Of a stretch of DNA of 64,000 nt, positions 14,685 to 38,060 are shown one piece after another. A program made the translations under genes and the position numbers. Every line of letters begins with the position of its first letter. Position 1 is the stretch's first letter. The stretch covers positions 806,001-870,000 of the forward strand of contig JAFEMH010000167.1 in the NCBI GenBank assembly GCA_022495995.1, in the 5' to 3' direction. Below the pieces are notes generated by a model, which was given only the letters and a program-made list of their open reading frames with translations, made no database searches and was not told the origin of the DNA. This stretch comes from Adenophora triphylla var. japonica (lineage: Eukaryota; Streptophyta; Magnoliopsida; Asterales; Campanulaceae).

Positions 14685-15243
14685 TGTTATGGGTAAAATT
14701 CAGGATTGCTACGTCTTGAGTTTTTATCAGCATGACAGCATCTTCACTCTCGAAGGCAAGGTAAAAATTATTTACTTAAATTCTGTTATATTTTAAATAC
14801 ATGGATAAAAAGTACGTGGGAAAAACGTGTCCAACAGACTCCTTTCAACGGCTTGGAAGACTAGGTCAAGATGAAGATAACTCACCGAAATTATAGGGAG
14901 TTTGTTAGGCTTTTATCTTTTTGTTATTTTATTTCTTATTTATAAGCTTATGGCTGGAAACGAAAACACAAGAACACACGCATTACACTCACACAGCTAA
15001 AAAATACTTTGTAATCCGCCATAGCTTTCTGCTTTGTAATTCATTATTAATAGAATTGTTTGGGAAGGTAGGTGCTCATAATCACCTCTCGAGGTTTTGT
15101 GCCGGCGAGATAGTTATCTCAAGGGTTTTCCTCGTTACATGATCGAGCCATCTTGATTATATTGTTGCACTAATTATATTCCATTGCACCCTCCTTAGCT
15201 TCATTTCAATTCTTATCATTATTGAATGTTTTTAGCCAAAACA
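14685..15243 (+). repeat. A 5' LTR (559 bp)
   Basis: Starts TGTTATGGGTAAAATTC and ends AGCCAAAACA. The 3' copy is 25 bases longer, mainly from an extra ATTAATT-rich segment. TATAAG at 14941-14946 is a possible TATA. Confidence 0.95.
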
Positions 15244-15304: not shown

Positions 15305-16742
15305 ATGTCTACCCAACATTTGACTTCCGCCGTCACCAAAACCCTTCCTAGCAGTGTGAATCCTCAAACCAGTAATCGGTCGACAACCGGAGGCCAAGAA
15401 ACATTGCCTCCTCCTCCTCCTGTGAATTCCAACAAAAAGCAGATGTCACCATCTCCTGATCTTGAGATAAAGAGCATGCCGATGCAGATGAATAATCAGC
15501 TTGATCGTTAACAGAATAGCACCTCCTTGATAGCTGAAAGCTTGATCAAGGTGCAGAAAGATCAGGAATTACTCTCTAAAAGAATGGATGCTGTCTCTCC
15601 TTACCATCCTAGAGTTCTTGATTTCAACATTGGGGACAGCTCTCAAACTTTCAACGAATTCATTCCAATGGCTTCATCTGTCAGGATGTCGACATCTTCC
15701 CCTCCCATTACGACCTCTGTGGCGATGTCGACACCCTTAGCCAGCTGTGCCTTCAGGATGACTTTTCCAGAAGGGCCTATCTTCACTAATAGCACCATTC
15801 TGACATCCTCTATAGATAATGTTAATCCTTTCATTAATTTCAATACTAGTTCTGCTTTAGATAATACTACTCGTACCACTAACCCTTTTGCAGGAACCTA
15901 CATTGCGAATCAGCTTCAGGAATTGAGAGATATGATCATGAATGTGCCTGGTGTCACCCCACCTATCCAACAAGTCTCCCCAACATGTTACAATCAATCT
16001 CGCTTTACTCCAGCAATTGCACATGTTGACATCCCGAAAGGATTCAGCGTTCCTGCCATGAAATTGTATGATGGAAGTTCTGATCCTGAGGAGCATGTCG
16101 CCCACTACCAAGAAAAAATGGAGATTGTTCGCATCCCGCTCCAGTTTCGTGAGGCCTATTTGTGTTGAGGGTTCGGTTCAGCGTTGGTAGGACCGGCATT
16201 GAAGTGGCTGATCCATCAACCTCCTGGTTCTATTGGATCGTTTGCTCAGCTTGTCAACTTCTTCAACAATCAATTTTCTTGCAGCCGGCAATTTGAAAAG
16301 CTAACCAGTGATCTTTATCATATCACTCAGTAAACTAATGAAGCATTAAAAGACTTTGTTAACAGGTTTAATAAAGAAGTCTTGGAGATCCCCAACCTAG
16401 ACATGGCAACAGCTGCAGAAGCTTTCAAAATGGGCTTGAAGAAGGATTCCCCTTACTATGAGGATCTGGTGATGAACCCGTGCAAGAAAATGGAAGATAT
16501 CCGAAATCGGGCCCTAAGATTTATCAGCCGAAGAGGACAAGATGCGAATCCAAGAATCCTGACAAAGCTTCAACATATGACCATCCTGACAGGAAGATAG
16601 ATTCATCTCATCAAAAGCAGAGTAGATCTAGACCATACCACAAAAATGACCATAACAAAGTCAATTATGTGGAAGATGATGGAGATGATGATGATATTGA
16701 ATCTCCTAAAATTTCTGATTATTTGTTGATGTTTCAGGTATT
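15305..16742 (+). pseudogene. gag: A gag
   Basis: ATG 15305 (MSTQHLTS) aligns with the gag start of B (MSAPTNVS). An N-terminal proline/serine-rich tail (GGQETLPPPPPVNSNKK) comes first. The core has IPKGFSVPAMKLYDGSSDPE, HVAHYQEKMEIVRIPLQFRE, FGSALVGPALKWLI and ALKDFVNRFNKEV. In-frame stops occur at about 15509 (CGT TAA), 16166 (TGT TGA) and 16331 (CAG TAA). A frame change near 16525 passes the reading to a lysine- and aspartate-rich segment ending near 16740. B carries the same gag with different lesions, so the joint architecture is well supported. Confidence 0.9.
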
Positions 16743-17565
16743 TTGTGTACAATGAGCAATCTCGGAGATAAAGCAAGGTGGCCTCGAAAGACTGACAAGT
16801 CATCCGGCTGGAAGGACAAATCCAAATGGTGCGCCTATCATGATGATTTTGGACATCTTACCGAAGATTGCATCGCCTTGAGGAAAGATATTAGTTACCT
16901 ATTGTCTAAGGGACATCTTAAAGAGCTCCTTGGGAACCGCAAGACCAAGATGGAGAACAAAGAACCCGTTGCAACCAGACCACCATCTCCTCCACCGGTA
17001 ACAAAGGTAATTAATGTTATTATTGGTGGTTCTGATATTTGTGGTACTTCTTATTCTGCAGCTAAGAGATTCGCTAAGCAAGCTAAGGATGAGAAACCTG
17101 AGAGATCCTCCAAGATGTCACAGCTCACATCTCAAGATGTCATCTCCTTCGAAGAAAGTGATCGGGACAATGTTATGGATCCACATCATGATGCCTTGGT
17201 CGTTGCACTTCAGATAGCCAACTGCAAGGTCAGACGTATCCTAATAGATGGGGGCAGCTCTGTGAATCTCATCATGCTGGATGCTCTGAAGGAAATGATG
17301 ATCCCGGAAGACAGCAGTGTGAAAAGGACCTCGGTGCTCATGGGTTTTAGTGGAGAAATTCTGTGTAATTGATAGTTCAACTTGTTATAATGTAATCCTG
17401 GGAAGACCGTGGATCCATGGGATGAAGGGTGTACCATCCACCTATCATCAATGTGTCAAGATGCCGACACCTTGGGGTGTTGTCAAGGTTTACAGTGATC
17501 AACAGTCAGCTAAAGAATGTTACATGACTTCCATGAAGGCGTCAACAACCCCTAAGATGGCATAG
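16743..17565 (+). pseudogene. pol: A gag zinc knuckle and protease
   Basis: GDKARWPRKTDKSSGW precedes a knuckle KWCAYHDDFGHLTEDC (C-x2-H-x4-H-x4-C), near 16828-16875. The protease active-site block is RRILIDGGSSVNLIML near 17230-17280, a D-G-G form common in this lineage. About 68 bases are then missing relative to B (at about 17358), removing the segment before VIDSSTCYNVILGRPWIHG and shifting the frame. STYHQCVKMPTPWG follows. A TAG ends the stretch at 17563-17565. The protease would process Gag-Pol in the particle. Confidence 0.88.
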
Positions 17566-19070
17566 CAAGTACAGAGAAAGGCCCGTGAGGTTCTGGAGGC
17601 GAAGGAACATGATTTGAAAGAGATACTCTTAGACCCCTCAAACCCAGATCTCAAAGTGCTGGTTGGCCAAGATGTTCCAGCGGAAATAGAAGAAGACCTT
17701 ATTAACCTCTTGCAGGGCAGGCTTAGAAGCTTCGCATGGAAACATGAAGATATGACAGGCATCAGTAATAATGTAATCACCCACAAACTCAACATCGATC
17801 CATCTTTCAGACCGATCCACCAAAAGAGAAGAAAGTTTGCACAGGAAAGGAATATTATCATTCAAGAAGAAGTGGATAGACTACTCAAAGCTAAGATGAT
17901 CAGAGAGGTCGAATATCCAAGATGGCTAGCAAATGTGGTGGTAGTAGAAAAAAAGAATGGAAAATGGAGAGTTTGCGTTGACTTCACAGACTTAAAGAAA
18001 GCTTGTCCCAAAGATCCTTTTCCCTTGCCACACATTGATACTCTGGTAGATGCTACTTTTGGGCATGAAGTGTTGACTTTCCTGGATGCATCTTCAAGAT
18101 TCCAGCAAATCCAGATGGAGCCATCCGATCAAGAAGATACCGCCTTCATCACCCCAACAGGTATCTATTGTTACATTGCAATGCCTTTTGGACTAAGAAA
18201 TGCAGGTGCTACATACCAGAGGCTAGTCAACATGATGTTCAAGGAGCAGATTGGGGACACTATGGAGGTATACATTGACGATATGGTGATAAAGTCAAAG
18301 AAAGCTGAAAATCATGTTCGAGATCTTGCTCAAGCATTCAACATCCTAGACAAGTTCAACATGAAGCTGAATCCAGCAAAGTGTAGTTTTGGCATGAAGT
18401 TCGGGAAATTCTTGGGCTACATGGTGACACAAAGAGGGATAGAGGCAAGTCCAGAACAAATAAAAGACATCATCAATCTAACATCACCCAAATCCATAAA
18501 AGATGTTCAAAGATTGACAGGGAAGGTGGCAGCATTGAATCGATTCATCTCAAAATCCTCAGACAGATGCAAGCCGTTCTATGACATCTTAAAGAAGAAT
18601 TCTAGGTTCGAATGGACTGATAAGCATGAACAAGCCTTTCAAGATTTGAAGTTGTACCTGTCAACACCTCCCCTTCTTTCAAAGCCTCAAGAAGGTGAGC
18701 CATTGTGTGTCTACTTAGCTGTCTTCGAAACCTGAGCTAGTGCCGTCTGATCCGTGATCAAGATGGCATCCAGCAGCCAATATACTATGTAAGTAAAACA
18801 TTGCTCGATGCGGAAACCAGGTATTCACACCTTGAAAAATTAATATTAGCTTTAATTTCTGCTTCTATTAAGTTAAGGCATTATTTTGAAACTCATGTTA
18901 TTATCATTCGTACTAACTATCCAATAAAAAGTGTCATGAGAAAACCAGAAATGTCAGGAAGGATGGCCAAGTGGTCCGTTCAGTTGAGCACTTATGACAT
19001 CAAATATGAGCCTAGAACAACAATAAAATCACAAGCACTTGCAGATTTTGTGGCAGACTTTAGTCCAAGT
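17566..19070 (+). pseudogene. pol: A reverse transcriptase and first RNase H
   Basis: The frame is uninterrupted to 18735. Blocks are FAWKHEDMTGI, EYPRWLANVVVVEKKNGKW, VCVDFTDLKKACPKDPFPLP, LTFLDASSRFQQIQM, YCYIAMPFGLRNAGATYQR and the catalytic YIDDMVIKSKK, all complete. Thumb/connection: LNPAKCSFGMKFGKFLGYMV and VQRLTGKVAALNRFIS. The first RNase H is cut by TGA at 18733 and a shift, then resumes as QPIYYVSKTLLDAETRYSHL, LRHYFETHVIIIRTNYPIK and ALADFVADF. This is the Ty3-type RNase H, which often lacks some catalytic residues in dual-RNase H elements. Confidence 0.92.
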
Positions 19071-19540
19071 ATGCAACCAAAAGTAGAACTTGAAGTCCAA
19101 CAACTCCAAGATGGGGACACCTTGAGGATGTGGACTCTATTCACAGATGGTGCTTCTAATATGAGGGGCACAGGGCTAGGTGTTGTCCTAAAGTCACCAC
19201 AAGGGGACATCATACCCCAGGCCATTAGTTGTGATTTTAAAGCCACCAATAATGAGGCAGAATACGAAGCCTTAATCGTGGGCCTATCCGTGGCTCTAGA
19301 CATGAACATCAAAGCGATACAGGTATATAGTGATTCATTATTACTTGTAAATCATTTTAACGGTTCCTAAGCAGCAAAAAATGCCAAGATGACAGCTTAT
19401 TTGGGCATTGTGAAGATTTTGGCAAGCAAATTTCAAATATTCTCTTTTGAACAAATACCTCGAGAAGAGAACTCTCAAGCAGATGCATTGGCAAATCTTG
19501 GATCAGCTTTCAAGAGTTTGTCTCAGACCAATATCCCAAT
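19071..19540 (+). pseudogene. pol: A second, archaeal-like RNase H
   Basis: WTLFTDGASNMRGTGLGVVL carries the first Asp. TNNEAEYEALIVGLSVAL carries the Glu, and VYSDSLLLVNHFNGS the second Asp. A TAA interrupts at 19368-19370. REENSQADALANLGSAF carries the last Asp. All four catalytic positions are present. A second RNase H of this kind downstream of the Ty3 RNase H is the known mark of Tat-lineage elements, and removes the RNA strand after reverse transcription. Confidence 0.88.
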
Positions 19541-20859
19541 CATACATGTTAACATCCCTGCTGTGGAAAGGTTAGAACTATTCTGTATAGATGACGACAT
19601 CCCTGATAGTCAGATGCAGATATCTTGGACGACGCCAATAATCAAATATCTTCAAGATGGTACTATCCCTGATGAGGAAAAGAATGCTAGAGCATTCAGG
19701 GTAAAAATTTCAAGATTTATATTAATAGATAATGTGCTATTTAAAAAATCATTTGCAGGCCCATATTTGAGATGTCTCGAAGCCGACCAAGCTAAGGAAG
19801 TCCTAAGAGAATTACATGAAGGATCATGTGGTAACCATTCTGGGGCAGAAGCTTATATACAAAAGCTCTGAGAATGGGTTATTACTGGCCAACAATGCGA
19901 CAAGATGCTGCCATCTTTGCCAAGAATTGTGATTCCTGCCAGAGGCATGGAGACATCTTGCATCAGCCCGCAGAATTGCTTCATCCAATCCTCTCTACTT
20001 GGCCGTTCATGAGATGGGGAATGGGTATAATGGGAAAATTGCCTAAAGCTCCTGGGGGAAAAGTTTTCTTGCTTGCTATGACTAATTATTTCTCTAAATG
20101 GGTTGAGGCTGAATCCTATGTGCAAGTTCGTGATAAGGAAGTCATATCCTTCATTAAGAGAAATATATTTAGTAGGTTTGGCATCCCATCTGAAATAATA
20201 TGTGACAACGGCTCTCAATTCATCATCAAGAAGACACAAGATTTTCTTGCTGGGTGGGGAGTTAAGATGGTGACATCTTCACCTGTTCATCCTCAAGCTA
20301 ATGGCCAGGCAGAATCAAGCAATAAAATAATCATCAATAATCTGAAGAAGAGGCTAGATCAAAAGAAATGAAGATGGGCAGAAGAGCTTCCCTTTGTCCT
20401 TTGGGCAGATAGAACCACACCAAAAAATGCGACAGGCCAAACCCCCTATTCCTTAGTGTTTGGAGCAGAAGCGGTCATCCCGACAGAAATTGTCGTCCCC
20501 AGTGCCAGGCTCAAGATGTTGACACCAGAGCAAAATGATGCCAACCTGAGTCATGATCTAGATACCATTGACGAACTAAGGGACCTTGCTAAGATCAGGA
20601 TAGCAGCATATCAGCAGAAGATTGCAAGATCCTACAACAAGAATGTTAGATTGCAAAAATTTCAAGTTGGTGATTTAGTGCTACGGAAGGTATTTCAGAA
20701 TACAAGAGAACCCATGCTGGAAAGATGGCTCCCAAATGGGAAGGTCCATACCTAGTGGATGCTGAAGCAGGCAAAGGTTCCTATTGGCTATCGACTCTAG
20801 AAGGAGCAAGGATTCCCAGAAGCTGGAACGCGATCCATCTCAAAACCTACTTTATGTAA
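19541..20859 (+). pseudogene. pol: A integrase
   Basis: PIIKYLQDGTIPDEEKNA is the pre-integrase linker. The H-H-C-C finger spans LREL-H-EGSCGN-H to NCDSCQRHG, with a TGA and frame change at about 19870. The catalytic core reads [15 protein letters not shown]: the first catalytic Asp, present as WGMDIVGK in B, is Gly here. ICDNGSQF and NGQAESSNK carry the second Asp and the Glu. A TGA at about 20369 and a shift near 20735 break the C-terminal part, which ends with RSWNAIHLKTYFM and TAA at 20857-20859. The copy cannot make a working integrase. Confidence 0.9.
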
Positions 20860-21524: not shown

Positions 21525-22129
21525 TGTTGTGGGCATTTTTCAACATGGCGACATCTTCAATTGATCCTGCATATCGAGATGTCATTACACTGTAAGTATT
21601 GTTTTAATATTTACTTGTCCAATATTTCCTAATATTATTATTCTTATTTTTCAGTAATTAAGAGAGGAATGCGGAAACAACCTTCAAGCACGTTCAACAG
21701 ACCTTCAAACGGCTAGGGCGACTTGGTCTCACGGAGGTTGAAAAGATAAACCACAATGCCGAGATTGTAGGAACCATATTTGACTCTTTCTTAGTTACTT
21801 GTATTTAAGGGGAAATGGAGACGGAAAATGACACTCATGCTCATACGCACACACTTTACACACAAACTCTTGTAATCCTCTCCATTATCTTCCGAAGTTG
21901 TAATTGTGATCATTATAGTGGAACCTTTAAGGTTGGAGACCTAACTCCCGGGGTTTTTCCAAAGAGGTTATCACCTCCAAGGTTTTCCTCGTTAACAAAT
22001 CGCGTTGTCATTGTCTCGTTTTTCATTTTCTTGTTCCATATAATCGAATTCCATAGTTCCCTCCTTATTATTCAATCCACACACTAAACATAGTTAAGAT
22101 TCTACTCTATTGTTTTTTCTACCAAAACA
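21525..22129 (+). repeat. B 5' LTR (605 bp)
   Basis: TGTTGTGGGC...CTACCAAAACA. Against the 3' LTR there are roughly ten differences in the first 80 bases but only about three in the remaining 520. Confidence 0.96.
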
Positions 22130-22132
22130 ATT

Positions 22133-22149: not shown

Positions 22150-22196
22150 CCTCGTGGTTTATCGGTTATTTGAAACATTTCCTAATCGAATTCACT

Positions 22197-23880
22197 ATGT
22201 CTGCACCCACCAATGTGTCCACCGCCGGCAAAGGTCCCACCGTTGTTCCCACATCAGGAGGTAGAACCGGCTTGTTACCACCGCCTCCTCAGACCGGATC
22301 TCAGCCAACTCAACCTACGAAGACTCCACAAAAGGGGGCGACCTCTTCCAATGCAGATGCTGACATCCGGAGTATCCTAACCAGGTTGAATCAAAGGTTG
22401 GACCAGCAAGATAACAATTCGAAGGTGTTGACCAATTCCATGATTAAGATGCGAAAGACCAACAACTCATAGCATCTCGGCTTGAAAACATATCACCACT
22501 GCGCGCAAGGTTTCTCAACTTTGACAACTCCTGGAGGATCTACATTTCAGAATGAATTCATTCCAATGGGCAATCCTCCTCCGCGCGACATCTTTCATGA
22601 TGTCAACATCTTTGCCGGGGACACCCCTTTGACACCATCTTCTGCAGGATTCACTCCATTCATCCCATTTATAGACAGACCTGTCACGACTACTACGGAC
22701 AACTCTGGTTTGCTTAATAATCTTTTCAATAATGATAATTTCAATCGTATTCCTATGGGTGACCCTTTTGCAGAAACCCACTAGCTAAACAGATGCAGGA
22801 TCTCAGAGAATTAGTAATGAACGTGCAGTGTGACTCCTCCAATTCAACCGATTACGCAGAAGCTGCTACAATCAGTCTCGGTTTGTCCCAGCAATTGCAA
22901 ATGTCGACATACCGAAGCGCTTCAAGTACCATCTATGAAGTTGTACGACGGCACCACGGACCCAAAGGAGCACGTGGCACACTATCAAGAAAAGATGGAC
23001 ATAATCCATATTCCACTTCAATTCCGGGAGGCTTGCTTATGCAGGGGATTTGGATCCACCTTATCTGGACCAGCTCTCAAATGGTTGATTAGGCAACCCC
23101 TAGGTTCAATTGGTCCATACGCCCGGCTCATCAACATGTTCTATAACCAATTCTCATGGATGACAATTTGAAAGGTTGACAAGTGACCTTTACAATGTAA
23201 CTCAGGCCTAATGAAACCCTAAAGGATTACGTCCACCGGTTCAATAAAGAGGTCGGAAATTCCCAATCTTGACATGTCGACCCTACGTAAGCATTCAAAA
23301 TGGGGTTGAAGAAAGATTCGCAGATTACCAAGATTTGGTAATGACTCCTTGTAAGCGGCCGGAGGAAGTCGGAGCAGGGCATTGAGATTCATAAGACTGG
23401 AGGAAGATGAGCTGCGAAGATCAAAGTCATCATCCAAGACGTCGACATATGACCATCCCGATAGAAAGACTGAATCGTCCCATCGCAGAAACAACCGTCC
23501 CAATCCTTATCCGAGAATTGACACTAGCAAAATTAATTCAATAGACGGTGAGGATGAAGATAATGATAATGTGCCTAACATTTCTGATTATTGTTTTTCC
23601 GTTGATATTTCAGGTGTACTTTGCGCAATGGGCAACCTGGGAGACAAAGCCAGATGGCCAAAGAAAACGGACAAAACCACAGGATGGCGTGACAAATCAA
23701 AATGGTGTGCTTACCATGAAGACTTTGGGCATGTTACTGAAGATGCATCGCGTTAAGAAAGGAGATCAGTTACTTGCTCTCGAAAGGACATCTTAAGGAG
23801 CTGTTGGGATCCAGAAAGAAGAAAGCTGAAAGTACAGAAGCTCCTCATGAAGCTGAAAGACCAGTTTCTCCCAGGCATCA
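22197..23880 (+). pseudogene. gag: B gag with zinc knuckle
   Basis: ATG 22197 (MSAPTNVSTAGKGP). The proline-rich N-terminus LLPPPPQTGSQPTQPTK resembles A. Core blocks are recoverable only by changing frame: QVPSMKLYDGTTDPKEHVAH, YQEKMDIIHIPLQFREAC and LRFIRLEEDELRR. The knuckle is KWCAYHEDFGHVTED followed by a lost base before the final Cys. At least eight frame changes or stops occur in 1.6 kb (for example near 22470, 22783, 23080, 23170, 23290, 23750). The same blocks in A confirm the identity. Confidence 0.85.
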
Positions 23881-24480
23881 ACAAAGGTGATCAACTTCAT
23901 TAGTGGAGGCTCGAAATATGTGGAACATCCTATTCTGCCGCAAAACGACATGCTAAGGAGTCAAAAGATGAAAAGCCAGGAGAGAGGCCAGGGATGTCGA
24001 TACCTTGCCCAGACAATTGTCTTTGATGAAAGTGATCGTGATAACTTGCCGGAACCCCATCATGACGGTCTGGTCATTTCCTTGCAGATCGCTAACTGTA
24101 CCATACGACGTATTCTCGGTAGATGGGGCAGCTCCGTCAATCTTATTATGTTGGGTACCCTTAAAGAAATGAACATCCCGGAATCGGAGATTGTCAAAAA
24201 ATCTTCAGCTTTGGTAGGCTTCAGTGGCGAAGTCAAAGAAACAGTGGGGGAGATAAAGCTTCCAATATACTCAAAGGGCCTCAACACCGTGGAACGGTTT
24301 TGTGTAATTGATTGCGCAACATCTTACAATGTAATTCTTGGAAGACCGAGTGGATTCATTGGAATGAAGGCCGTACCCTCCACTTACCATCAATGTGTGA
24401 AGTTTCCAACACCTTGGGGTGTCGCTAAGATTTACAAGTGATCAACAGGTGGCCAAGGAATGTTACAAAACTTCAATGAA
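23881..24480 (+). pseudogene. pol: B protease
   Basis: VFDESDRDNLPEPHHDGLVI and SLQIANCTIRRILG precede the active site. The sequence there reads GRWGSSVNLIML: one extra base before and one missing base after the D-G-G of A scramble the catalytic residues while keeping the flanks in frame. B keeps the segment deleted in A (GEIKLPIYSKGLNTVERF), then CVIDCATSYNVILGRPS and STYHQCVKFPTPWG. Confidence 0.86.
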
Positions 24481-26010
24481 GGCGTCTACATCTCCAAAAC
24501 AAGCATAGCAATTACCGAAGAAAGTACGTGAAGTCCTGGAAGCTAAGGAGGATGATGTGAAAGAAGTATTGTTAGATCCTTCCAACCCGACATCAAAGTA
24601 CTTATTGGCACCTTGACATATCGTCGATATAGAGGAGAAGCTTGTGAACCTATTAAGAAGCGGAATAAAAAGTTTCGCTTGGAAACATGATGACATGACC
24701 GGCATTAGCAAAGATGTCATCACTCACAAACTTAACATAGATCCCATCTTCAAACCAGTGCACCGAAACGTAGAAAGTTTGCGAAACCAGAAATCGAGAT
24801 CATCAAGGAGGAGGTAGAGCGCTTACTCAAAGCCAACATGATACGAGAGGTCGATTATCCAAGATGGTTGGCAAATGTGGTTGTGGTAGAGAAGAGAAAC
24901 GGGAAATGGCGAGTTTGCGTCGACTTCACCGACTTAAATAAGGCCTGCCCAAAAGATCCTTTCCTTTGCCGCACATAGATTCATTAGTTGATGCCACCTC
25001 AGGTCACGAACTCCTCACATTCATGGACGCGTCCTCGGGATTTCAACAAATTCAGATGGAACCATCGACCAAGAAGACACCGCCTTCATAACCCCTCGTG
25101 TATTTATTGTTATATTGCCATGCCTTTTGGACTAAAAATGCAGGTGCAACGTATCAAAGGCTCGTCAACAAGATGTTTAAGGATCAGATTGGGGACACAA
25201 TGGAGGTATACATCGGCGACGACATGGTTGTTAAGTCTAAGAAGGCCGAGGACCACATTAGCAATCTCTCTCAAGCCTTTGACATCTTGGATTGTTTCAA
25301 TATGAAACTTAATCCAGCCTAAATGCAACTTCGGAATGAAAGCCGGCAAGTTTTTGGGCTATATGGTCACTAAAAGAGGCATTGAAGCCGCCCAGAACAA
25401 ATACGCGCGCCATTCTCAACCCGTCATCACCTCAATCTGTCAAGGACGTCCAAAGACTAACAGGAAAAATTGCCGCACTCACTAGATTCATTTCAAAATC
25501 CTCGACCGATGCAAACCTTTCTACGACATCTTAAGAAAGAACAAAAAGTTTCAATGGGAGGACCAACATGAAAAAGCTTTTCAGAACTCAAAACTTACTT
25601 GTCGACACCTCCCTTATTGGCCAAACCTCGAATAGAAGAACATCTTTACATCTACCTAGCAGTATCCGAAGGCGCTGTAAGTGCAGATCTTGATAACAGA
25701 ACGAGATGGCAATCAGCAACCCATCTACTATATAAGTAAGACACTCTTAGATGCCGAGACCAGGTATTCTCATTTACAAAAATTAATTTTAGCTTTGATA
25801 ATCGCTTCTGTTAAATTAAGGCACTATTTTGAAACACATACTATTATTGTACGCACTAACTATCCTATTAAGAATGTCATGAGAAAACCAGAGATGTCGA
25901 GGTCGAATGGCGAAATGGTCTGCATGATTAAGCACATACGACATCAAGTACGAGCCTAGAACTGCGATAAAATCTCAAGCCCTGGCAGATTTTGTGGCTG
26001 ATTTCAGCCC
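24481..26010 (+). pseudogene. pol: B reverse transcriptase and first RNase H
   Basis: RT blocks match A (KANMIREVDYPRWLANVVVV, VCVDFTDLNKACPKDP, RVYLLLYCHAF in a shifted frame, GATYQRLVNKMFKDQIGDT). The catalytic motif reads YIGDDMVVKSKK, with three extra bases giving a Gly before the Asp pair, unlike YIDD in A. Frame breaks occur near 24960, 25070, 25100, 25320, 25390, 25505 and 25590. The RNase H part includes PIYYISKTLLDAETRYSHLQ, LRHYFETHTIIVRTNYPIK and KNVMRKPEMS. Confidence 0.88.
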
Positions 26011-26510
26011 AACCCTACAACAAGAGGTGGAATTGGAAGTACAAAGAACTTCAAGATGATGACATTCTAAAAATTTGGACTCTCTACACGGACGGTGCTT
26101 CCAACATGAGAGGTACAGGTCTTGGAGTTGTACTAAAATCGCCACAAGGGGACATAATACCACAATCTATCGATTGCGGCTTCAAGGCTACCAACAATGA
26201 AGCAGAGTACGAGGCACTTATCGCAGGTTTAACACCAAGACTTAGATGTCAAGCATATCCGGGTGTTCATGGATTCATTACTAATTGTTAATCACTACAA
26301 TGGGTCCTACGTCGCGAAAAATGCTAAAATGACGACATATTTGGAAATTGTAAAAATTATTTCGGCCAAATTCAAAACATTTTCCTTGGAACAAATCCCG
26401 CGAGAAGAAAATTCTCAAGCCGATGCTTTGGCAAATTTGGGTTCGGCCTTCAAAAGCTTCTCACAAACCAATATCCCAATCGTGCATGTTGACATCCCAA
26501 AGAATTGACA
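26011..26510 (+). pseudogene. pol: B second, archaeal-like RNase H
   Basis: IWTLYTDGASNMRGTGLGVV and TNNEAEYEALIAGL match A. A shift near 26240 breaks the next block, which resumes as DSLLIVNHYNGS and then REENSQADALANLGSAFKS. All four catalytic positions can be read across the two frames. Confidence 0.86.
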
Positions 26511-27802
26511 ATCTCGAGATGTTCGTCCTAGATGTTGACATACCTTCCTCTCCTGCATCAACCTCTTGGACAGCCCCTATTATCAAGTATCTCTTAGATG
26601 ATACGATCCCAGCTTGAGGAGAAGAATGCGAGAGCCTTCAGGGTAAGAGTATCTAAATATGTACTTATTGATAATCTCTTGTTTAGAAAATCTGCCGCAG
26701 TCACTACTTAAGGTGTCTAGAAGCGAGATAGAGCCCATCGGAGTTCTCAAGGAGCTGCATGAAGGAGATTGTGGAAATCATACCGGGGGCAGAAGTTTAC
26801 ATACTAAAGCTCTAAGGTTGGGCTATTTACTGGCCCACAATGAGAAAAGACGCCATTGACTACTCAAAGAAATGCGATTCTGCCGCCGACATGGGGACAT
26901 CCCTGCACCGGCCAGAATTGCTACATCCTATCCTGTCACCTTGGCCGTTTATGGTTTGGGGAATGGACATTGTAGGAAAACTTCCCAGAGCACCAGGGGG
27001 ACGAGTATTTCTTTTGGCCATGACAGACTACTTTTCTAAGTGGGTAGAGGCTGAGGCATATGTGCAAGTTCGTGATAAAGAAGTAATATCTTTTATCAAA
27101 AGGAACATATTTAGTCGATTTGGAATTCCATCAGAAATAATTTGTGACAACGGCTCTCAGTTCATCGGAAGAGGACCCAAGATTTCTTGACAGCTTGGGG
27201 TGTTAAGATGGTAACGTCTTCGCCTGTTCACCCTCAAGCCAATGGACGAGCAGAGTCTAGCAACAAAATAATAATCAGCAACTTAAAAAAGAGACTAAAC
27301 CAGAAAAAAGGACGTTGGGCAGAAGAATTACCAATGGTCCTATGGGGGCGACAGGACGACATCTAAGAATGCTACTGGTCAAACCCCTATTCACTTGTAT
27401 TTGGAACTGAATCTGTTATTCCAGCAGAAGTCCTTGTACCTACGGCAAGATACAGCTTGCTGACATCTGAAAATAATAAAGACATCTTGATACATTCCCT
27501 GGATACTGTGGACGAGCTAAGGGATATGGCCAAAGTTCGCATGGCGGCATATCAGCAAAGGGTAGCCCGATCATACAATAAAAACGTCGGGGTCGGAAAG
27601 GTTTCAAGTAGGAGACTTAGTCCTACGAAAGGCATTCCAAAATACCAAGGAGTCCAATGCAGGCAAGCTCGCCCCAAAATGGGAGGGACCCTACTTGATA
27701 GATGCACAAGCCGGAAAAGGAGCATATCGCCTTGCAACCTTGGATGGCCAAATGATACCCCGAAGTTGGAACGCCATTCATCTCAAAAGGTATTACATTT
27801 AA
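26511..27802 (+). pseudogene. pol: B integrase
   Basis: WTAPIIKYLLDDTIPA, then a damaged H-H-C-C finger (LKELHEGDCGNHTGG ... KKCDSAAD with the last Cys pair disturbed). The core reads [19 protein letters not shown] (first Asp intact, unlike A), ICDNGSQFIG (second Asp) and, after a shift near 27178, the NGRAESSNK block. VDELRDMAKVRMAAYQQR and the end ...NAIHLKRYYI, with TAA at 27800-27802, close pol. Shifts also lie near 26600, 26700, 27350 and 27590. Confidence 0.88.
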
Positions 27803-28640
27803 ATATGACTTCCCATGAACTCATCTTTCCAGTGTATGAATCGTATTTTAATTCTTTTCTCCTATGTATCTTTTTAATTATTTACATGATAAGATGTCTC
27901 TAACATGCTTTGTGAGAGACGTCAACCTTAGTTGGCGTCCGTTTTTAACGTGTTTCTATCTTATGAGGTATTGACACATTTACATGGGGACATATCGAAA
28001 GCATGCAAAGAACAACGATTCCTCCTCGTTAGAGACTGGCCATCTCTTCTCAAGTAAAGGTACACAATCCCTTCTAAGGTTTAAAGAGTTAATTACCTCT
28101 TTCTAAAGAAGTTAGGTTACCACACCTTCGCCTGGAGCGCAAGTTATCTCACTAATTGAGGTGTGGGGTGGGTCTATATGGGTAAACTCATATAGCTTAC
28201 CCATTCCCACTCAGTTAGATGATTGATCTTAAGCATTATTCTTATGGTTATGGCATATTCGTGTCATCTAAGTATCTACGGTTTATGGCATATACGTGTC
28301 ATCTAAGTATCTACGGTTTATGACATCTACATGTCATCCTAAATACCTATTATTCTGACATACTATCATGTCACCATATGTGAAAAACATACGAAAAATT
28401 ATCCAAAAAAGAAACAAGCCTTGACGTGCTTGAAAACCATTAGACCATAACTAAACTAAAATAACCATAATGTATCCAAACCACCAAAGTAAAAGTGCGA
28501 AAGTGTTGAACCAACCCAACACTTAAAAAAGATTGTCTTTGGCCCTTAAGGACCTATTACGAACCAAACCAAAATAAAAATTGTCTTAAGGGACTCCGCC
28601 CGGATAATCATCAACAAAATACCAAAGAACCAAATTGTTT
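27803..28640 (+). other. B 3' non-coding region with direct repeats
   Basis: It contains the block shared with A (about 28030-28240). At 28245-28345 there are three roughly 35-bp direct repeats built on GTTTATGGCATATACGTGTC and ATCTAAGTATCTAC. The site in A where B inserted (CGTGT then CATCTAAGTAC) is the equivalent of this repeat. No gene is seen on the plus strand. Confidence 0.75.
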
Positions 28641-28656
28641 TTACCTTCTTTTTTGT

Positions 28657-30414
28657 TTAGGTGGCTTCTGCCGCAGGTGTTGTACCGGGTGTCACTTCTC
28701 CAACTGTTGGTGCATCCTGGACAATTGTTTCATATGGACTTGATGACACCTCGCCCTCGTCCCCCACCTCACCTGTTAACTTGGATAGATAGGCACATTC
28801 CTGTGAATATCCCGTGCACCAGCCTTTCCTTCTTGGTATTCCTTCATCATTTTCACCTTGCATTGAGAAACAGTCTTCACCGCAGCCAGTTTACAAGAAT
28901 TCCTCACCTCTCGCTATCTCCTTGTTGTGATCATCTTCACTTTTCGCCAAACTATTCACCAAGTCCTTAGCTATCTGCTCTTGTTCTCCCAATGATTTGC
29001 TTAGTTGCTCTATTATCTTCTCACATTCCTTCACTTTATTATCAGTATACCAACTTCTCCTTCTTGACCAAAGCAATATCCGCTTTGGATTTCTTCTTCA
29101 CCAATTCAACTTCTTTTGCCAACTCCTCCACGTATCCTACAGCCGAAAAATAACATCCTGATATTACTAAAAGTTATCACAACCTTTGAAACTATTAAAT
29201 ATTCAATTAATGATGGCTCACCCCACATGCCAGGCTCATAAATCTCTTCTTGAACTCCCCGCCGACGGTCCATCAACAGAGTCTCCCACCTCGATCACTT
29301 CCTCTTGGCCAGCTTTTCTTTTCCTCACCCTAGAACCAATCCCAGCGCTTTCATCAAGAATAGGACTCTTCTTAGGAGCGGGTGGAGGTTTCTTTTCGAT
29401 CTTGACAAATGGGCTCGGAAAGCAAGGCCTCGATATCCTCCAGATCAAAGTCTACCACTGAAGCTATCGGTTTGGAGACTGCATGGACATAGAGATATTG
29501 TCAATAACAAATAACACATCAAATTAATGACAGCTTATCAAAGGTAACAGGATGCCAAGCTTACCGGTAGACATTATTACGAAGTTGAAGCCTCTATATC
29601 CTCTGGGACAGTCGACGAAACTTCCAGCAAACCTTTGGGAGATCTCTTATCGAGAGGGAGATTGAAAAACTCTTCGATTTTTGCTAAAGTATCTTTTGCG
29701 AGGCGGAAATAACTCTCCCCAATCAATATCTACATGAAAGCAAAAACAATTACAATTCGGTTTGTCTCAAGAACAGGAAATCACAAGAGTAAGAATTTAA
29801 GTACCTCCTGGTTCCATTGCTTCGACATCTCATCCTTCTCACCGATTGACGTCCTATCAACAAAGAAAAACCTATTCTTCCATCCCCTATCACCGGAGGA
29901 TGTGCTTTGCTCATCAAAGGATTTCTACTGACTTCTTTCTAAATAGGTACCGTTTGGAACCAAAAAGTTGAAGATCATAGGAATGGGCAATTTCGTGGAG
30001 CCCTAAGTCTAGTCCGTTTTCTCGGTTTACTTTAAGAACAAAAGCAAATACTCGCCAAGCCATTGGCATAAGTTGAGCATAAGCCGGTTGAGTTTTTAGA
30101 AAGAACTCGGTAACCAACCGTGGGAAAGGGTAGCTAAACCCTAGCAAGAAGGGATATTCGAAGAAGCAGATCCATTTGGGAGAAACATGGTCGAGACCTA
30201 AGTTTTATGGAAAAAGGATGAAAAATTACACCACTTGGGAAACAACATTGTTGTTTTATGGTCTCTATTTGAGAATCATTAAACAAACAAGTTTCTTCAA
30301 CGCAGGTTTAGTGAGAAGATTTGCGCAAACAAAGTCGTCGAGATTAATCTCTACGGGACCTTGTCGGGATGACGCTTTCTTGGGTTTGGAAGCGGACATC
30401 CTGGTTTTACCCAT
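28657..30414 (-). pseudogene. B antisense additional gene with introns
   Basis: Opposite in strand to gag-pol. The start is ATG at 30414 or 30399 (MSASKPKKA). Exon 1 carries PKWICFFEYPFLLGFSYPF, LMPMAWRVFAFVLKVN and DRGWKNRFFFVDR, resembling the plant putative gypsy-type transposon domain (I recall Pfam Transposase_28). Intron 1 is 29804-29730 (GT...TGTAG), intron 2 29564-29479 (GTAAG...TGCAG), intron 3 29221-29137 (GTGAG...TGTAG). Exon 3 has a basic patch RVRKRKA and exon 4 a coiled-coil stretch (KECEKIIEQLSKSLGEQEQ). The end is near 28657. Several single-base losses break it. The function is unknown. Confidence 0.8.
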
Positions 30415-30710
30415 GGTTGACAAAGCAAAAAGAGAAGAATAAACAAAGGAAGAAGGTCGAGATGGAGTGATTTTACCTTGAAAGCGAACGGCGCCGTGGG
30501 CCAAAGGAGGTGAAAAGAAGATTTGAGAAGATAAGTTTTCTCAAGCGGTTAATAAAAAGGAAAAAGAATCCCTTTTCAAATTTAACACTCTCCCCAACCG
30601 TTCATTTCATCGCCACGTCTCCCAAGAACGTCCCATCGGCAGAGTAACAGTTGGGTCATTAATTCAAAAGGAAAAACATTTTGCCTCTTCGATTGCCTAC
30701 ATAGTCAAAT

Positions 30711-30726
30711 GTTTTTGGGGACAAAT
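30711..30726 (+). other. B polypurine tract
   Basis: GTTTTTGGGGACAAAT abuts the 3' LTR. A has the parallel TTTTTTGGGGATAA. Confidence 0.65.
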
Positions 30727-31332
30727 TGTTGTGGGCATTTTTTGACATGACGACATATTCGATTGATCTGCATAACGAGATGTCATTACACAGTAAGTAT
30801 TGTTTTAAATATTTACTTGTCCAATATTTCCTAATATTATTATTCTTATTTTTCAGTAATTAAGAGAGGAATGCGGAAACAACCTTCAAGCACGTTCAAC
30901 GGACCTTCAAACGGCTAGGGCGACTTGGTCTCACGGAGGTTGAAAAGATAAACCACAATGCCGAGATTGTAGGAACCATATTTGACTCTTTCTTAGTTAC
31001 TTGTATTTAAGGGGAAATGGAGACGGAAAATGACACTCATGCTCATACGCACACACTTTACACACAAACTCTTGTAATCCTCTCCATTATCTTCCGAAGT
31101 TGTAATTGTGATCATTATAGTGGAACCTTTAAGGTTGGAGACCTAACTCCCGGGGTTTTTTCCAAAGAGGTTATCACCTCCAAGGTTTTCCTCGTTAACA
31201 AATCGCGTTGTCATTGTCTCGTTTTTCATTTTCTTGTTCCATATAATCGAATTCCATAGTTCCCTCCTTATTATTCAATCCACACACTAAACATAGTTAA
31301 GATTCTACTCTATTGTTTTTTCTACCAAAACA
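30727..31332 (+). repeat. B 3' LTR (606 bp)
   Basis: Same ends as the 5' LTR and followed by target duplication CGTGT at 31333-31337. Confidence 0.96.
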
Positions 31333-31337
31333 CGTGT

Positions 31338-31693
31338 CATCTAAGTACAAACGGTTATTGACATTTACATGTCAATCTAAGTAATTGCAAAGGATTTCTA
31401 CATCCACTCGCAAGCTGTTACCATCTACGAAGAGGTTAATATATCAACCTCCTAAAAACGTTTTTCATAAAGATACTTGGGGAAAGTTTTTCCAAAACCC
31501 AAGCAAAAGTTTATCCTACAGAAAGCATAAACAGTGCTGGACCAACCCAATACTTGAAAAAACAAATTGTCTTGGCCCTTATGGGCCGATTACAAACCAA
31601 AATGTTGTCTTCGGGATGCAACCCATTTCAAACCAATGTTTTTAAGCCAATTTTTTTCAAAACCAAAAGTTTTTACCATGTTACCTTCTTCCT
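31338..31693 (+). other. A 3' region after B, non-coding
   Basis: Continues the GTGTCATCTAAGTA motif, interrupted by B, and runs to the end of the antisense gene. No gene is seen. Confidence 0.6.
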
Positions 31694-33378
31694 TCATGGG
31701 GTGGCTACTGCCGCTGATGTTGTTGCTACTCCTTCATCCAAGATATCATCACCTTTGGCTGCAGAGGATCCTTCTCCTACCTCCTCTCCCTTAGCTTCTA
31801 AAGTCTTCAAGAGGAAACGTTGTTGCTCAACATTCCACTCTGTGTGATTCCCGGCATGAAACTCCTCCATCATTTGAATCTTGATTGCAACCATGCTCTG
31901 GGCAGCGGAAGCTATCATGCTTTTCTTTAAATCCTCAATCTCATGCAGCTGTGTGTCTTGAAGGGAAGACATCCCTGTCATCAAGCTTTCCACCTCCTTC
32001 TGTAATTCTTCATTTTTCTTAGCCCCGACTTCCCTCTATTTCTTGACTTGAATAAGTTCAAGCACCAGCTTCCTATTCCTTTCCTCAAGAGCATTCATTC
32101 TTATCTTAGCAGCATCAACACCCTGCAAAAGGCCAAAAGGTAGGTCAAAACCATGGATACACTATTTCCTTTGAGACTCAGTTTTTTTTTCATAAAAAAC
32201 TTTCCACTGCTGCCCTAGCCAGCGCCTCTTCCACATCCCCTAAGCATGTTTCATCCACATTTATCACCTCCTTGGAACTTCTCTTCCTCTTCTTCACCCT
32301 GGCTCCTACAGATGGTGCCTCCATCTCTCTTTTGGGCTCCAACACCTGATTGCTTGCCTGAGTTTACCCCACGAAATCTTGAAGATCCTTAAGAGAAAAG
32401 GCAGCGGTAGACTTTGAAACTGTCAGAAGCAGTGCATTGTAAGAAGAATTCAGAATCCAAAAACACCAAGATAATGTGCACAAAGATTAAAAAGAAAACT
32501 TACCAGTAGACATTTTGGTGGAGGGTGGTATCCCTTTATCCTTAGAAATTGCTATATCTTCGTAAGGCTGGAAAGATCTTTCCCCCTCTGAGAACTCCAA
32601 TAACCTGTTCACCTTCCCAATTGTTTCAGCAGATGGAGGGAAAAGCTTAGCCCAATCGATAGCTGCAAAAACAAACAAAGAAATTACAACAGGTAAGTGC
32701 GGGAAATAAGGAAAAATTGATGTTTGAAAGAGGGATACCTTCCCTATTCCATTCAGTTGCCAAGAAATCTCCTTCCTCCAAGGAATCCTTCTCGACAAAG
32801 AAATATTTTGATTTCCAACCCCTATCACTCACAGTTACTTTCAAGAACAAGGGTTTCATTCCAGTCCTAGTCTTAAGAAGGTATCTGGTAGACCCAAAAG
32901 TTTGAAGCTCATACACAAAAGCCAACTCCTTCAAACCTATATCTAAACCGAATTCACGGTTCACCCTCAAGACACAAGAAAAGATCCTCCAAACCATGGG
33001 CATCACTTGTACAATTTCAAGGTTAGTCTTTCTAAAAAATTTGTTTATCATTGCAGGGAAAGGATAAGAAAAACCCAAAGTAAAGGGATACTCGTAAAGA
33101 CAAACCCATTTCGGAGATACGAAATCGGACCTAAGAAGAACATCGAATGATCTAAAGATAGTAGAATCTGGGAAACAGTGTCGATCCTTGAGGGATTCGA
33201 TCAGTTCATTGTTAAAAACACAGATTTCTTCATCTGGTTTCTTCAACAAACCTTCACACGAGAAACCCTCGTCCTCGTTTAAACTCAGAGGATTTTTCGT
33301 GGTTTTTACTTTTTTCGATTTCACAATTTTTTGAAAAGGCAACAGGAAGAAAAAGAGAGGGAAAGATTTTACCTTCAA
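31694..33378 (-). pseudogene. A antisense additional gene with introns
   Basis: Homologous to the antisense gene of B. Exon 1 (33378-32739) is open and contains SPKWVCLYEYPFTLGFSYPF, VMPMVWRIFSCVLRVN and DRGWKSKYFFVEK. Intron 1 is 32738-32663 (76 nt, GTATCC...TGCAG) and splits a codon; exon 2 continues IDWAKLFPPSAETIGKV. Intron 2 is 32503-32420 (84 nt, GTAAG...GACAG). In both A and B its removal gives MSTVSK. A third intron, about 32200-32123, has a weak donor. Exon 3 has a basic VKKRKR patch and exon 4 helices rich in Glu/Lys. Stops occur in exon 3 (TAA near 32362) and exon 4 (TAG near 32036). The role is unknown. Confidence 0.82.
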
Positions 33379-33599
33379 GGAAGATTCACCGCCGTGAAGA
33401 AGAACGGATGAAAGTGATGGGAAAAGGTGAAGGAGAAAGTGAAAAAAGTTTCCAATTAAAAACCCTAGATCTTGGGGTGGTTATGATAATTAAATGGAGA
33501 TTAACTCCTCAACCACCACGTAACTTCTCAAAAACTTAACCGCTGAGCTTCTAGAAAGACGTGGAAAAAACCGACCTTTTAAATTCATTTAAAAGACAG

Positions 33600-33613
33600 T
33601 TTTTTGGGGATAA
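33600..33613 (+). other. A polypurine tract
   Basis: TTTTTTGGGGATAA lies directly before the 3' LTR. Confidence 0.6.
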
Positions 33614-34197
33614 TTGTTATGGGTAAAATTCAGGATTGCTACGTCTTGAGTTTTTATCAGCATGACAACATCTTCACTCTCGAAGGCAAGGTAAAAATTA
33701 TTTACTTAAATTAATTAATTATTTATTTCTGTTATATTTTAAATACAGGGATAAAAAGTACGTGGGAAAAACGTGTCCAATAGACTCCTTTCAACAGCTT
33801 GGAAGACTAGGTCAAGATGAAGATAACTCACCGAAATTATAGGGAGTTTGTTAGGCTTTTATCTTTTTGTTATTTTATTTCTTATTTATAAGCTTATGGC
33901 TGGAAACGAAAACACAACAACATAAGAACACACGCACTACACTCACATAGCAAAAAAATACTTTGTAATCCGCCATAGCTTTCTGCTTTGTAATTCATTA
34001 TTAATACAATTGTTTGGGAAGGTAGGTGCTCTTAATCACCTCCCGAGGTTTTGTACCGGCGAGATAGTTATCTCAAGGGTTTTCCTCGTTACATGATCGA
34101 GCCATCTTGATTACATTGTTGCACTAATTATATTCCATTACACCGTTCTTTGCTTCATTTCAATTCTTATCATTGTTGACTGTTTTTAGCCAAAACA
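33614..34197 (+). repeat. A 3' LTR (584 bp)
   Basis: Matches the 5' LTR with small insertions. The plus strand of the TATA region reads CTTATTTATAAG, so a TATAAATA also lies on the minus strand (33883-33890), about 500 bases upstream of the antisense gene's start. It could serve as that gene's promoter (inference). Confidence 0.95.
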
Positions 34198-34202
34198 ATG
34201 CC

Positions 34203-35587
34203 CCATGGCACGAGTCGTGCCCTTTACCCACTCGTGACTACGAATCGTGATTTTGGTGTCACCCATGCTGGTTTAATTGGGGATGCAATGGCACGAGTCG
34301 TGCCATAGGTCACGAGTCGTGCCATACCCTGTCACCTCTGAAGCAGTTTTCAAGCAACATAAACCTAATCTACCTAGGATATAATTGAACCTTCTTTGAC
34401 TATAAGTAAAGTAGAACATTTTAGCTATACAATGATGTCTTACTTGGTCAAAATGGAATTGTGGAAGTGGTTTAAATAATATTCAGAAAATGGTTGGCAG
34501 ACTTGATTTGCAACTTAACCAAAGCGAATCAAACTTGGTAATTTGAACTTGGACCTTTATAGAGGTTATGAATTGTTGCATATTGAATAGGTAGGGCTTG
34601 TTGGTTATACATTGTGTCCTTACTTGAGCTCATATTCGTGGTTGGTGACTTAAATAATGTATGAAATGTATGTTGCACTATTGTATTGATTTAAACATGA
34701 GTATGAATACCATGTTGTTATTTTCTTATCCCTTTGGGTGGATTTCTTTTCAAGTAACTATTAATTGCTTGAACTTGTATTAATCAGCTGATGTTTAGGG
34801 GTATAATGGAATACAATCAGTCATGGAAATTGTTCTATAATGTGATCGAATTACGTTATACCTGTGACTGTCCCCTTCTGTGGCCACAGACTGGGGTTAT
34901 AGTATCTATATTGAGCCAAAAGCCTTACAGAGTTGCTAGAATCTTATATGGTTCCATGAAAAATGGGTCTTATAAGATGTGAATATGCCTAAGCAGTTCA
35001 CAAATGAGTGGAGTTATATCTCCCAATATTGTACGACTTATTGTTCAGACAAAAAAGGGTAAACCAAGGTAATGTAAGGTGTTTACGGCTTTTCCAATGT
35101 GTTATATGCACCTTGTTATATGTTGTACATCTTACTTGGCATATTTTTGCATTCATAATAGCTTATTGAGATTTATTCTCACCCTTCTCCCTTTAATGTT
35201 TTAGATCGCTCTGAGACAGGCGGATCGACCCAGTAAGGCCGGAGAGGAGTTTGGAAGTTGTCTTTTGGGATTGTCAGAAGGGTATGTATAGGTGGTGGAT
35301 GTTGAAAGTTGTATTTTGGTATCACTCCTTTGTTGGAGTTTGTTTATATAACATATTTTGTATAACTTATATTTGAAATGTTTGTAAACTAAAACAAGTA
35401 TGTTTTTCAAAGTTGGTTCATGTCTTTTCCTCCAAGTGGAGATGATTCAAGTTAGTATTTGAATGGTAATGTTAAAGTTGTGTTCTTTTCATGTTAAGTC
35501 AATGTTTTTAAATTTTAGGTGTTTTGAATTGTAAGGGGACCCTCCCGCTCGGGGCATGAGCTAGGGTTCCGGGTCGGGGTCCCCACA
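34203..35587 (+). repeat. G2 3' LTR, second part (1,385 bp)
   Basis: Resumes the G2 LTR after A and ends GGGTCCCCACA. Together with the first part it totals 2,406 bp. It contains palindromes at 34207, 34290 and 34309, and the segment that is deleted from the 5' LTR. Confidence 0.93.
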
Positions 35588-37141: not shown

Positions 37142-37329
37142 AATGTCACTTATGGAAGAAGTGAGGTTGTCGATAAAAGAAGGCCCAATCCCAATGAGCG
37201 GCTGGGGAAATGGCGGATGGCTGGACGATGATCCGATGAGATCGGATGGCTGGACCTTTGGAGAAAGGATTCCTACGTATCCCTGGAGGGAATCAAACTG
37301 GTCATAGTTCAGACTATTCGGAGGTGTCT

Positions 37330-37957
37330 GACCCAAATGAGACTGTTAGGAGGCATCTGAACCCGGTGGAAGACTGTTGAGAGGCGTATGAACTCGGTGG
37401 AAGACTGTTGGGAGGCGTCTGAACCCGGTGGAAGACTGTTAGGAGGTGTCTGAACCCGATGAAAAAGACTGTTGGGAGGCATCTGGACCCAGTGGAAGAC
37501 TGTTAGGAGGCGTCTGAACCCGATGGAAGACTGTTGGGAGGCGTCTGAACCCGGTGGAAGACTGTTAGGAGGCGTCTGAACCCGATGGAAGACTGTTAGG
37601 AGGCATCTGAACCCGATGGAAGACTGTTAGGAGGCGTCTGAACCCGATGGAAGACTGTTAGGAGGCGTCTGAACCCGATGGAAGACTGTTAGGAGGCGTC
37701 TGAACCCGGTGGAAGACTGTTAGGAGGCGTCTGAACCCGATGGAAGACTGTTGGGAGGCATCTGGACTCGGTGGAAGACTGTTAGGAGGCGTCTGGACCC
37801 GGTGGAAGACTGTTAGGAGGCATCTGAACCCGATGGAAGACTGTTGGGAGGCATCTGGACCCGATGGAAGACTGTTGGGAGGCGTCTGAACCCGATGGAA
37901 GACTGTTGGGAGGTGTCTGAACCCGATGGAAGACTGTTAGGAGGCTTCTGAACCCGG
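37330..37957 (-). repeat. D3 tandem array, about 20 units of 31 bp
   Basis: Unit core on the plus strand is GACTGTTAGGAGGCGTCTGA then ACCCGATGGAA, with limited variation (GGGAGG, CATCTG, CCCGGTGG). It lies between pol and the 3' LTR, the hypervariable 3' untranslated position where Tat-lineage elements are known to carry tandem repeats. There are no unique spacers, so it is not a CRISPR-like array. Confidence 0.92.
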
Positions 37958-38060
37958 TTGCGCGAGATGAACTGAAGGGAATGATTTTTCAAGAATGCCA
38001 GACATGATGATTTGACAATTTGAACGAGATATGATTTCATACATGTGCTGTGCTTACCTG

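What the first reader, a model, noticed from the sequence alone, without database searches (positions are those of the whole stretch)
28657..33378. Antisense, intron-containing gene conserved in two Tat-like elements (A and B)
Opposite to gag-pol, A (33378-31694) and B (30414-28657) carry homologous genes. Two introns are at matching positions with GT-AG ends and similar lengths: 76 and 75 nt, then 84 and 86 nt. In both, removing intron 2 joins a split codon to give MSTVSK, and removing intron 1 joins WNRE or WNQE to IDW. B shows a third clear intron; A's third has a weak donor. In an antisense gene the introns are invisible to splicing of the genomic RNA, so they survive retrotransposition. 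Antisense extra ORFs are known in Tat-lineage elements (for example Grande and Retand types); I do not recall conserved introns in them, so this may be undescribed. The encoded protein has a transposon-type N-terminal domain, a basic patch and a coiled-coil tail.
Basis: partly seen in the sequence, partly recalled or inferred. Interest (0 to 1): 0.9.

Follow-up and report, generated by a model that had tools for sequence, protein, structure and literature searches.

The report
Spliced antisense gene in plant retrotransposons
Two nested jumping genes in a plant genome each carry, on the strand opposite to their own copying genes, a gene interrupted by introns at the same places as in related sunflower and beet genes, so an element that copies itself through RNA appears to have kept ordinary introns for a very long time by hiding them on the other strand.

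Summary
The antisense ORF is known (Retand TRP28 ORF, Vicient 2025); the introns seem new. Their positions recur elsewhere: sunflower models join at A's intron-1 site and within a codon of intron 2; 43 of 102 informative homologs lose homology at the intron-1 site (at least 4 for other reasons); one unnamed contig has 73 nt there where a beet model has none. A sunflower profile ranks the claimed pairs first of 207 (intron 1, narrowly) and first of 201 (intron 2) in A. A-B exon-1 differences favour third codon positions; introns are T-rich and diverged. The spliced protein has a folded domain completed by exon 2, a basic linker and a coiled coil. Against or missing: no RNA reads; the window's B is one nucleotide out of register at intron 1; A lacks an ATG, has two stops and no clear third intron; among 40 young B copies exons are not less diverged than introns.

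The parts
14685..15243 (+). Element A 5' LTR (TSD ATGCC at 14680-14684 and 34198-34202)
15882..20845 (+). Element A gag-pol region: RT, RNase H, second RNase H (RVT_3), integrase
21525..22129 (+). Element B 5' LTR, nested in A (TSD CGTGT at 21520-21524 and 31333-31337)
22762..27788 (+). Element B gag-pol region, 68-73% identical to that of A in two blocks
29805..30414 (-). B antisense gene exon 1 (ATG at 30414; frame interrupted in this copy)
29730..29804 (-). B intron 1, 75 nt, GT-AG in 40 of 40 copies
29565..29729 (-). B exon 2
29479..29564 (-). B intron 2, 86 nt; GT 40 of 40 copies, AG 24 of 40
29222..29478 (-). B exon 3 (basic patch)
29137..29221 (-). B intron 3, 85 nt, GT-AG in 40 of 40 copies
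28657..29136 (-). B exon 4 (coiled-coil part)
30727..31332 (+). Element B 3' LTR
32739..33336 (-). A antisense gene exon 1 (open upstream to 33480, no ATG)
32663..32738 (-). A intron 1, 76 nt
32504..32662 (-). A exon 2
32420..32503 (-). A intron 2, 84 nt
32203..32419 (-). A exon 3 (basic patch; one in-frame stop)
32119..32202 (-). Place of A's third intron, donor unresolved
31694..32118 (-). A exon 4 (coiled-coil part; one in-frame stop)
33615..34197 (+). Element A 3' LTR

Best explanation
A and B carry one old accessory gene of Tat/Retand-type LTR retrotransposons, transcribed against gag-pol from a promoter close to the 3' LTR. It is interrupted by at least two, probably three, short spliceosomal introns (about 73-86 nt). 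The nuclear spliceosome removes them from the antisense pre-mRNA to give one protein of about 450 residues: a folded N-terminal domain related to TRP28/PF04195 proteins, a basic disordered linker, and a coiled coil. The sense genomic RNA carries only the complement of the introns (CT...AC), so it is not spliced there and each new copy inherits the introns whole; splicing for expression and copying for transposition are kept apart by strand. The protein most likely acts in the nucleus on the element's own DNA or RNA. Shown: anatomy, orientation, conserved junction sites, coding constraint between A and B. Inferred: transcription, splicing in vivo, the reason for persistence, function.
For: Junctions and lengths. 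Complete elements with LTRs and 5-bp TSDs, gene between pol and 3' LTR, opposite strand. Sunflower profile ranks the claimed A pairs first: intron 1 184.7 bits vs 182.8 for the next of 207 pairs and 181.2 unspliced; intron 2 198.9 vs 188.9 for the next of 201 and 183.8 unspliced. Of 141 homologs, 102 reach intron 1: 48 cross it, 3 cross with an insert, 43 lose homology there and run into other residues, 8 end there; for intron 2, of 49: 41, 2, 6, 0; for intron 3, of 40: 30, 3, 7, 0. Beet P0007 reads WNSE-EILPLP; the relative P0006 reads through and resumes the same text in another frame 73 nt on, 14 of 16 residues compatible, a fraction reached by 0 of 500 shuffles. Exon-1 block of A and B: 86 codons, differences 29/21/50 at positions 1/2/3, 52 of 86 residues identical, dN 0.31, dS not computable. 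A-B identity 42-43% in introns 1 and 2, 48-56% in exons; introns T-rich. Exon 2 completes the folded domain: junction residue 189, ordered to about 222.
Against: No RNA evidence was available. B intron 1 in the window copy is one nucleotide out of register and its pair ranks only 8th; B intron 2 ranks first but at 0.4 bits. A intron 1 wins by only 1.9 bits. A has no ATG, two in-frame stops and no good third intron. Intron 2's acceptor reads AG in only 24 of 40 B copies, though that site lies in an error-prone CAG context. Among the 40 close B copies exons are not less diverged than introns: away from CG/CHG sites introns 0.18-0.33%, exons 0.19-1.39%. A and B do not themselves match PF04195. 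P0013 and P0016 cross intron 1 without an insert; they come from short unnamed contigs and could be spliced cDNA or intron-less copies. 108 of the 141 homologs are named Helianthus, so they are not independent. The sunflower and beet models are predictions; I did not see their RNA support or their place inside elements.
Confidence: 0.85

Rival explanations
1. The antisense stretch is a decayed, frame-shifted ORF, and the introns are chance GT-AG pairs chosen to step over stops.
For: Both window copies have broken frames; B copies differ by many indels; A's third intron cannot be placed and B's pairs score poorly.
Against: The same sites recur in sunflower and beet relatives; claimed pairs rank first in A; third-position bias. 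In 40 B copies 81% of indel cells lie within 1 nt of CG/CHG sites against 21% of bases (largest of 1000 rotations 38%), which looks like base-calling error at methylated cytosines rather than decay.
Confidence: 0.05
2. The antisense RNA is spliced but its job is as RNA (pairing with the genomic RNA, siRNA production), and the protein no longer matters.
For: Vicient and Casacuberta discuss dsRNA regulation by such transcripts. Exons are not more constrained than introns among young B copies.
Against: Protein-level conservation between A and B and with sunflower and beet.
Confidence: 0.12
3. The sunflower and beet homologs are host genes, and A and B captured a host gene with its introns in antisense; the introns reflect a recent host ancestry rather than long life inside the element.
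For: An antisense genomic capture would bring introns along. The annotated models were not placed inside elements here.
Against: Antisense TRP28 ORFs are reported in 97% of Retand clusters over eudicots and monocots, so the gene has long been part of the element; the listed homologs include many separate Helianthus loci.
Confidence: 0.08

Closest known systems
Antisense TRP28 (PF04195) ORF of Retand LTR retrotransposons (Vicient 2025, PMC11963269; abstract, passages and Results section read)
   Same: Antisense ORF between pol and 3' LTR; TRP28-type domain; coiled-coil-type antisense ORFs in the same region; flowering plants only.
   Different: That paper lists separate antisense ORFs (104; 57 with TRP28, 11 Smc domains), and the word intron does not occur in its main text. 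Here the TRP28-like and coiled-coil parts are exons of one gene.
Grande gene23 (Gomez-Orte 2013; not read, known from the review PMC7264820, parts 1 and 2 of 3)
   Same: Antisense accessory gene between pol and the 3' LTR with its own promoter and a nuclear product.
   Different: The review does not use the word intron (count 0); the primary paper was not available. No sequence comparison made.
Spliced sense introns of Ogre and EVADE (PMC12786077 and PMC6317226, passages)
   Same: Introns within a plant LTR retrotransposon.
   Different: [quoted passage not shown] here the introns are on the other strand and cannot be lost with the genomic RNA.
HBZ, the antisense gene of HTLV-1 (antisense and nuclear; that it is spliced is recalled)
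   Same: Antisense, spliced, nuclear regulatory gene of a retroelement, promoter near the 3' LTR.
   Different: No sequence relation known or tested; other host kingdom; other intron layout.

Membership tests
Tat clade of plant Ty3/gypsy elements | Second RNase H domain between RNase H and integrase (Ogre/Retand position) | tested here: met
   Element A: RT (17566-18735), RT_RNaseH then RVT_3 (18741-19370), integrase (19835-20371); criterion from PMC6317226 passages. In B the two ORFs scanned gave no family; B is assigned by 68-73% DNA identity to A.
Retand lineage within Tat | Place in an RT phylogeny | not tested
   No tree was built.
Retand lineage within Tat | Antisense ORF between pol and 3' LTR | tested here: met
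   A and B; criterion from PMC11963269.
PF04195 Transposase_28 (TRP28) | Pfam profile match of the protein itself | tested here: not met
   A and a B fragment gave 0 families at E <= 10; of 56 aligned homologs 5 match at E <= 0.01, best 4.7e-6. So A and B are filed as divergent relatives of PF04195 proteins, not as members.
PF04195 Transposase_28 (TRP28) | Homology to proteins that carry PF04195 | tested here: met
   P0010 (PF04195) against A: 146 residues, 34% identity, E 5.5e-25 in a tblastn of the window; joint profile searches.
Spliceosomal introns (GT-AG) | Splice junctions seen in RNA | not testable with these tools
   No transcript data held for this species.
Spliceosomal introns (GT-AG) | Conserved position and phase in homologs | tested here: met
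   Introns 1 and 2; phase in homologs is inferred from read-through residues, not seen in DNA. Sunflower intron 2 falls one codon from that of A and B along MS(S/T). Intron 3: a sunflower break and a junction in B, the alignment between them not firm.

The most novel reading that the evidence does not exclude
The antisense TRP28 ORF and the separate coiled-coil (Smc-like) antisense ORFs described in Retand elements are exons of one ancestral spliced gene. Its intron-exon plan predates the split of the sunflower and beet lineages and has passed through countless RNA-mediated copyings because it lies on the unspliced strand; the introns may be kept because spliced mRNAs are exported better and silenced less.
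Probability: 0.55. Interest if true: 0.75.

Novelty: new variant of a known kind. Interest (0 to 1): 0.63.

Why it matters
Retroelements are expected to lose introns each time they copy themselves. A widespread plant lineage that keeps several spliceosomal introns by putting the gene on the opposite strand would be a clean natural exception. It changes how its accessory protein should be annotated: single-frame ORF scans cut the gene into pieces and miss the exon that completes the folded domain. It also makes the function of an unexplained, nearly universal Retand gene testable, because the full-length protein can be named. Strand-specific splicing gives a simple marker to tell expressed antisense mRNA from silencing by-products.
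Full report
What is there. The window is part of a 2.48-Gb plant assembly (G000:C167; that it is a plant is inferred from the elements). Two complete LTR elements are nested. A spans 14685-34197 with LTRs 92.8% identical and target duplication ATGCC; B spans 21525-31332 inside A with LTRs 98.2% identical and target duplication CGTGT. A's pol carries reverse transcriptase, RNase H, a second RNase H and integrase in that order, the order given for Ogre and Retand elements of the Tat clade (PMC6317226, passages). B is 68-73% identical to A in two gag-pol blocks. In each element the stretch between pol and the 3' LTR holds a gene on the opposite strand.

The junctions. All five stated introns have GT and AG ends and the stated lengths. 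In A, removal of introns 1 and 2 gives one open protein up to a stop in exon 3. Intron 2 gives MSTVSK in both elements. In the window's B, intron 1 is one nucleotide out of register; among 40 copies of the gene (the window's included) the stretch before and across the donor is 28 nt in 11, 29 nt in 27 and longer in 2. GT and AG of introns 1 and 3 are present in 40 of 40 copies, the GT of intron 2 in 40 and its AG in 24. A's third intron could not be placed. A has no ATG, and stops in exons 3 and 4. The sense strand reads CT...AC over each of the five introns.

Independent evidence from other plants. Three protein searches gave 141 homologs with sequence in hand (186 met the cut-off in the last search, 120 were listed): 108 named Helianthus, the rest Arctium, Beta, Chenopodium and contigs of unnamed origin. 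I classified all 141 against a profile of 18 Helianthus models. Intron 1: 39 do not reach it, 48 cross, 3 cross with an insert, 43 lose homology there and continue with other residues, 8 end there. At least four of the 43 (P0029, P0077, P0086, P0096) look by eye like models that join other stretches, or divergent or frame-shifted ones, rather than plain read-through. By eye, P0004, P0012, P0015 and P0019, which the profile counts as not reaching the site, also end shortly after it. Intron 2: 92 not reached, 41 cross, 2 with an insert, 6 stop. Intron 3: 101 not reached, 30 cross, 3 with an insert, 7 stop. The homologs are not independent: many are copies of related sunflower families, and the crossing set includes the profile's own members. 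Sunflower, beet and A agree at intron 1 to the codon (W plus three residues, then a split codon); sunflower intron 2 lies one codon from that of A and B. Beet P0007 reads WNSE-EILPLP, while P0006 from a 1050-base unnamed contig reads WNSE, then foreign residues, then resumes beet-like text in another frame 73 nt later (14 of 16 residues compatible; 0 of 500 shuffles reach that fraction). That is an intron of about the size seen here (76 and 75 nt) at the same site. P0013 and P0016 cross without an insert and may be cDNA or intron-less copies.

Ranking test. The sunflower profile, which contains neither A nor B, was used to score every GT-AG pair of 50 to about 250 nt in the relevant stretches. 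For A intron 1 the claimed pair is first of 207 spliced forms, by a small margin (184.7 vs 182.8 bits; unspliced 181.2). For A intron 2 it is first of 201 by a clear margin (198.9 vs 188.9; unspliced 183.8). For B intron 2 it is first of 411 candidates (154 scored) at a negligible score (0.4 bits), for B intron 1 eighth of 237 (146 scored); both suffer from the broken frame.

Composition and selection. The introns hold 41-49% T against a mean of 26-28% in exon windows of the same size; 0, 5, 0, 6 and 15 of 1067-1216 exon windows reach the value of the intron tested. A and B are 42-43% identical in introns 1 and 2, 45% over A's third-intron stretch, and 48-56% in exons. In the gap-free exon-1 block of 86 codons, differences fall 29/21/50 on codon positions 1/2/3, 52 residues are identical, dN is 0.31 and dS could not be computed, which I take as saturation: the protein was under purifying selection between the two lineages. 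Among 40 young B copies no such difference is seen; away from CG/CHG sites introns differ by 0.18-0.33% and exons by 0.19-1.39%. Frame breaks in B should therefore not be read as decay without better reads.

The protein. AlphaFold on the 449-residue sunflower model P0038 with 56 sequences gives an ordered N-terminal domain (about 10-222), a disordered stretch holding the basic patch (224-291) and a coiled coil (helix 294-392). Junctions 1, 2 and 3 fall at residues 189, 237 and 307, so exon 2 supplies the last well-predicted helix of the domain, and a single-frame ORF would end inside it. No solved structure matches, which proves nothing about novelty of the fold. A and B themselves miss PF04195, but P0010, P0021 and P0022 carry it, and P0010 aligns to A at 34% identity over 146 residues.

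Literature. Vicient 2025 (PMC11963269: abstract, passages, Results section) shows antisense TRP28 ORFs in 97% of Retand clusters and further antisense ORFs with Smc-like and other domains, treated as separate ORFs; 'intron' does not occur in its main text. The 2020 review (PMC7264820, parts 1 and 2 of 3) reports that Grande gene23 has its own promoter and a nuclear product, that Retand's antisense ORF is weakly expressed, and calls for a look at possible antisense and spliced transcripts. A 2025 review says plant LTR elements generally lack introns, with Ogre and EVADE as exceptions (PMC12786077, passages). Passages of PMC10606437, PMC11728184 and PMC3091746 added nothing on introns of this gene. 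Eight answered searches showed no description of introns in it. The primary papers Gomez-Orte 2013, Kejnovsky 2006 and Steinbauerova 2011 were not read, so prior mention there cannot be excluded.

How it works. A promoter near the 3' LTR (precedent: Grande) gives an antisense pre-mRNA that the spliceosome processes; the protein probably returns to the nucleus. The genomic RNA shows the introns only in complement, so reverse transcription copies them faithfully. Why introns stay is inference: better export and expression of spliced mRNAs, and lower siRNA production, are known effects in plants (recalled). The dual use of strands is the simplest account of introns in an RNA-copied element.

Verdict. 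The gene class is known; its spliced, intron-bearing form with sites shared by sunflower and, for intron 1, beet appears undescribed in the open literature searched. New variant of a known kind.

Noticed in passing
28657-30414 and copies L009-L047: Indels and substitutions among 40 B copies cluster at CG and CHG sites (81% and 76% of minority cells), as expected of nanopore base-calling error at methylated cytosines; frame breaks in this assembly's transposons are unreliable.
   Followed up: partly
33365-33375 and 30469-30479: An identical 11-mer AAGGTAAAATC lies on the antisense strand upstream of the start of both A and B in a T-rich leader; it looks like a splice donor, but no acceptor was established.
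   Followed up: partly
6756-14684 and 34199-35587: Another LTR element with 97% identical LTRs; its internal start recurs at 34199-35313 (94%), directly beyond the 3' end of A, as if A had inserted at the LTR border of a tandem or recombined copy.
   Followed up: no
37311-37958 and 51932-52831: Tandem-repeat-like self matches elsewhere in the window.
   Followed up: no
P0013, P0016 (short unnamed contigs): Homologs that cross intron 1 without an insert; either spliced cDNA or copies that lost the intron.
   Followed up: no
G000: The B gene has 1441 first-look candidates in the genome; the 40 scored are 94-100% identical, a large and young family.
   Followed up: partly
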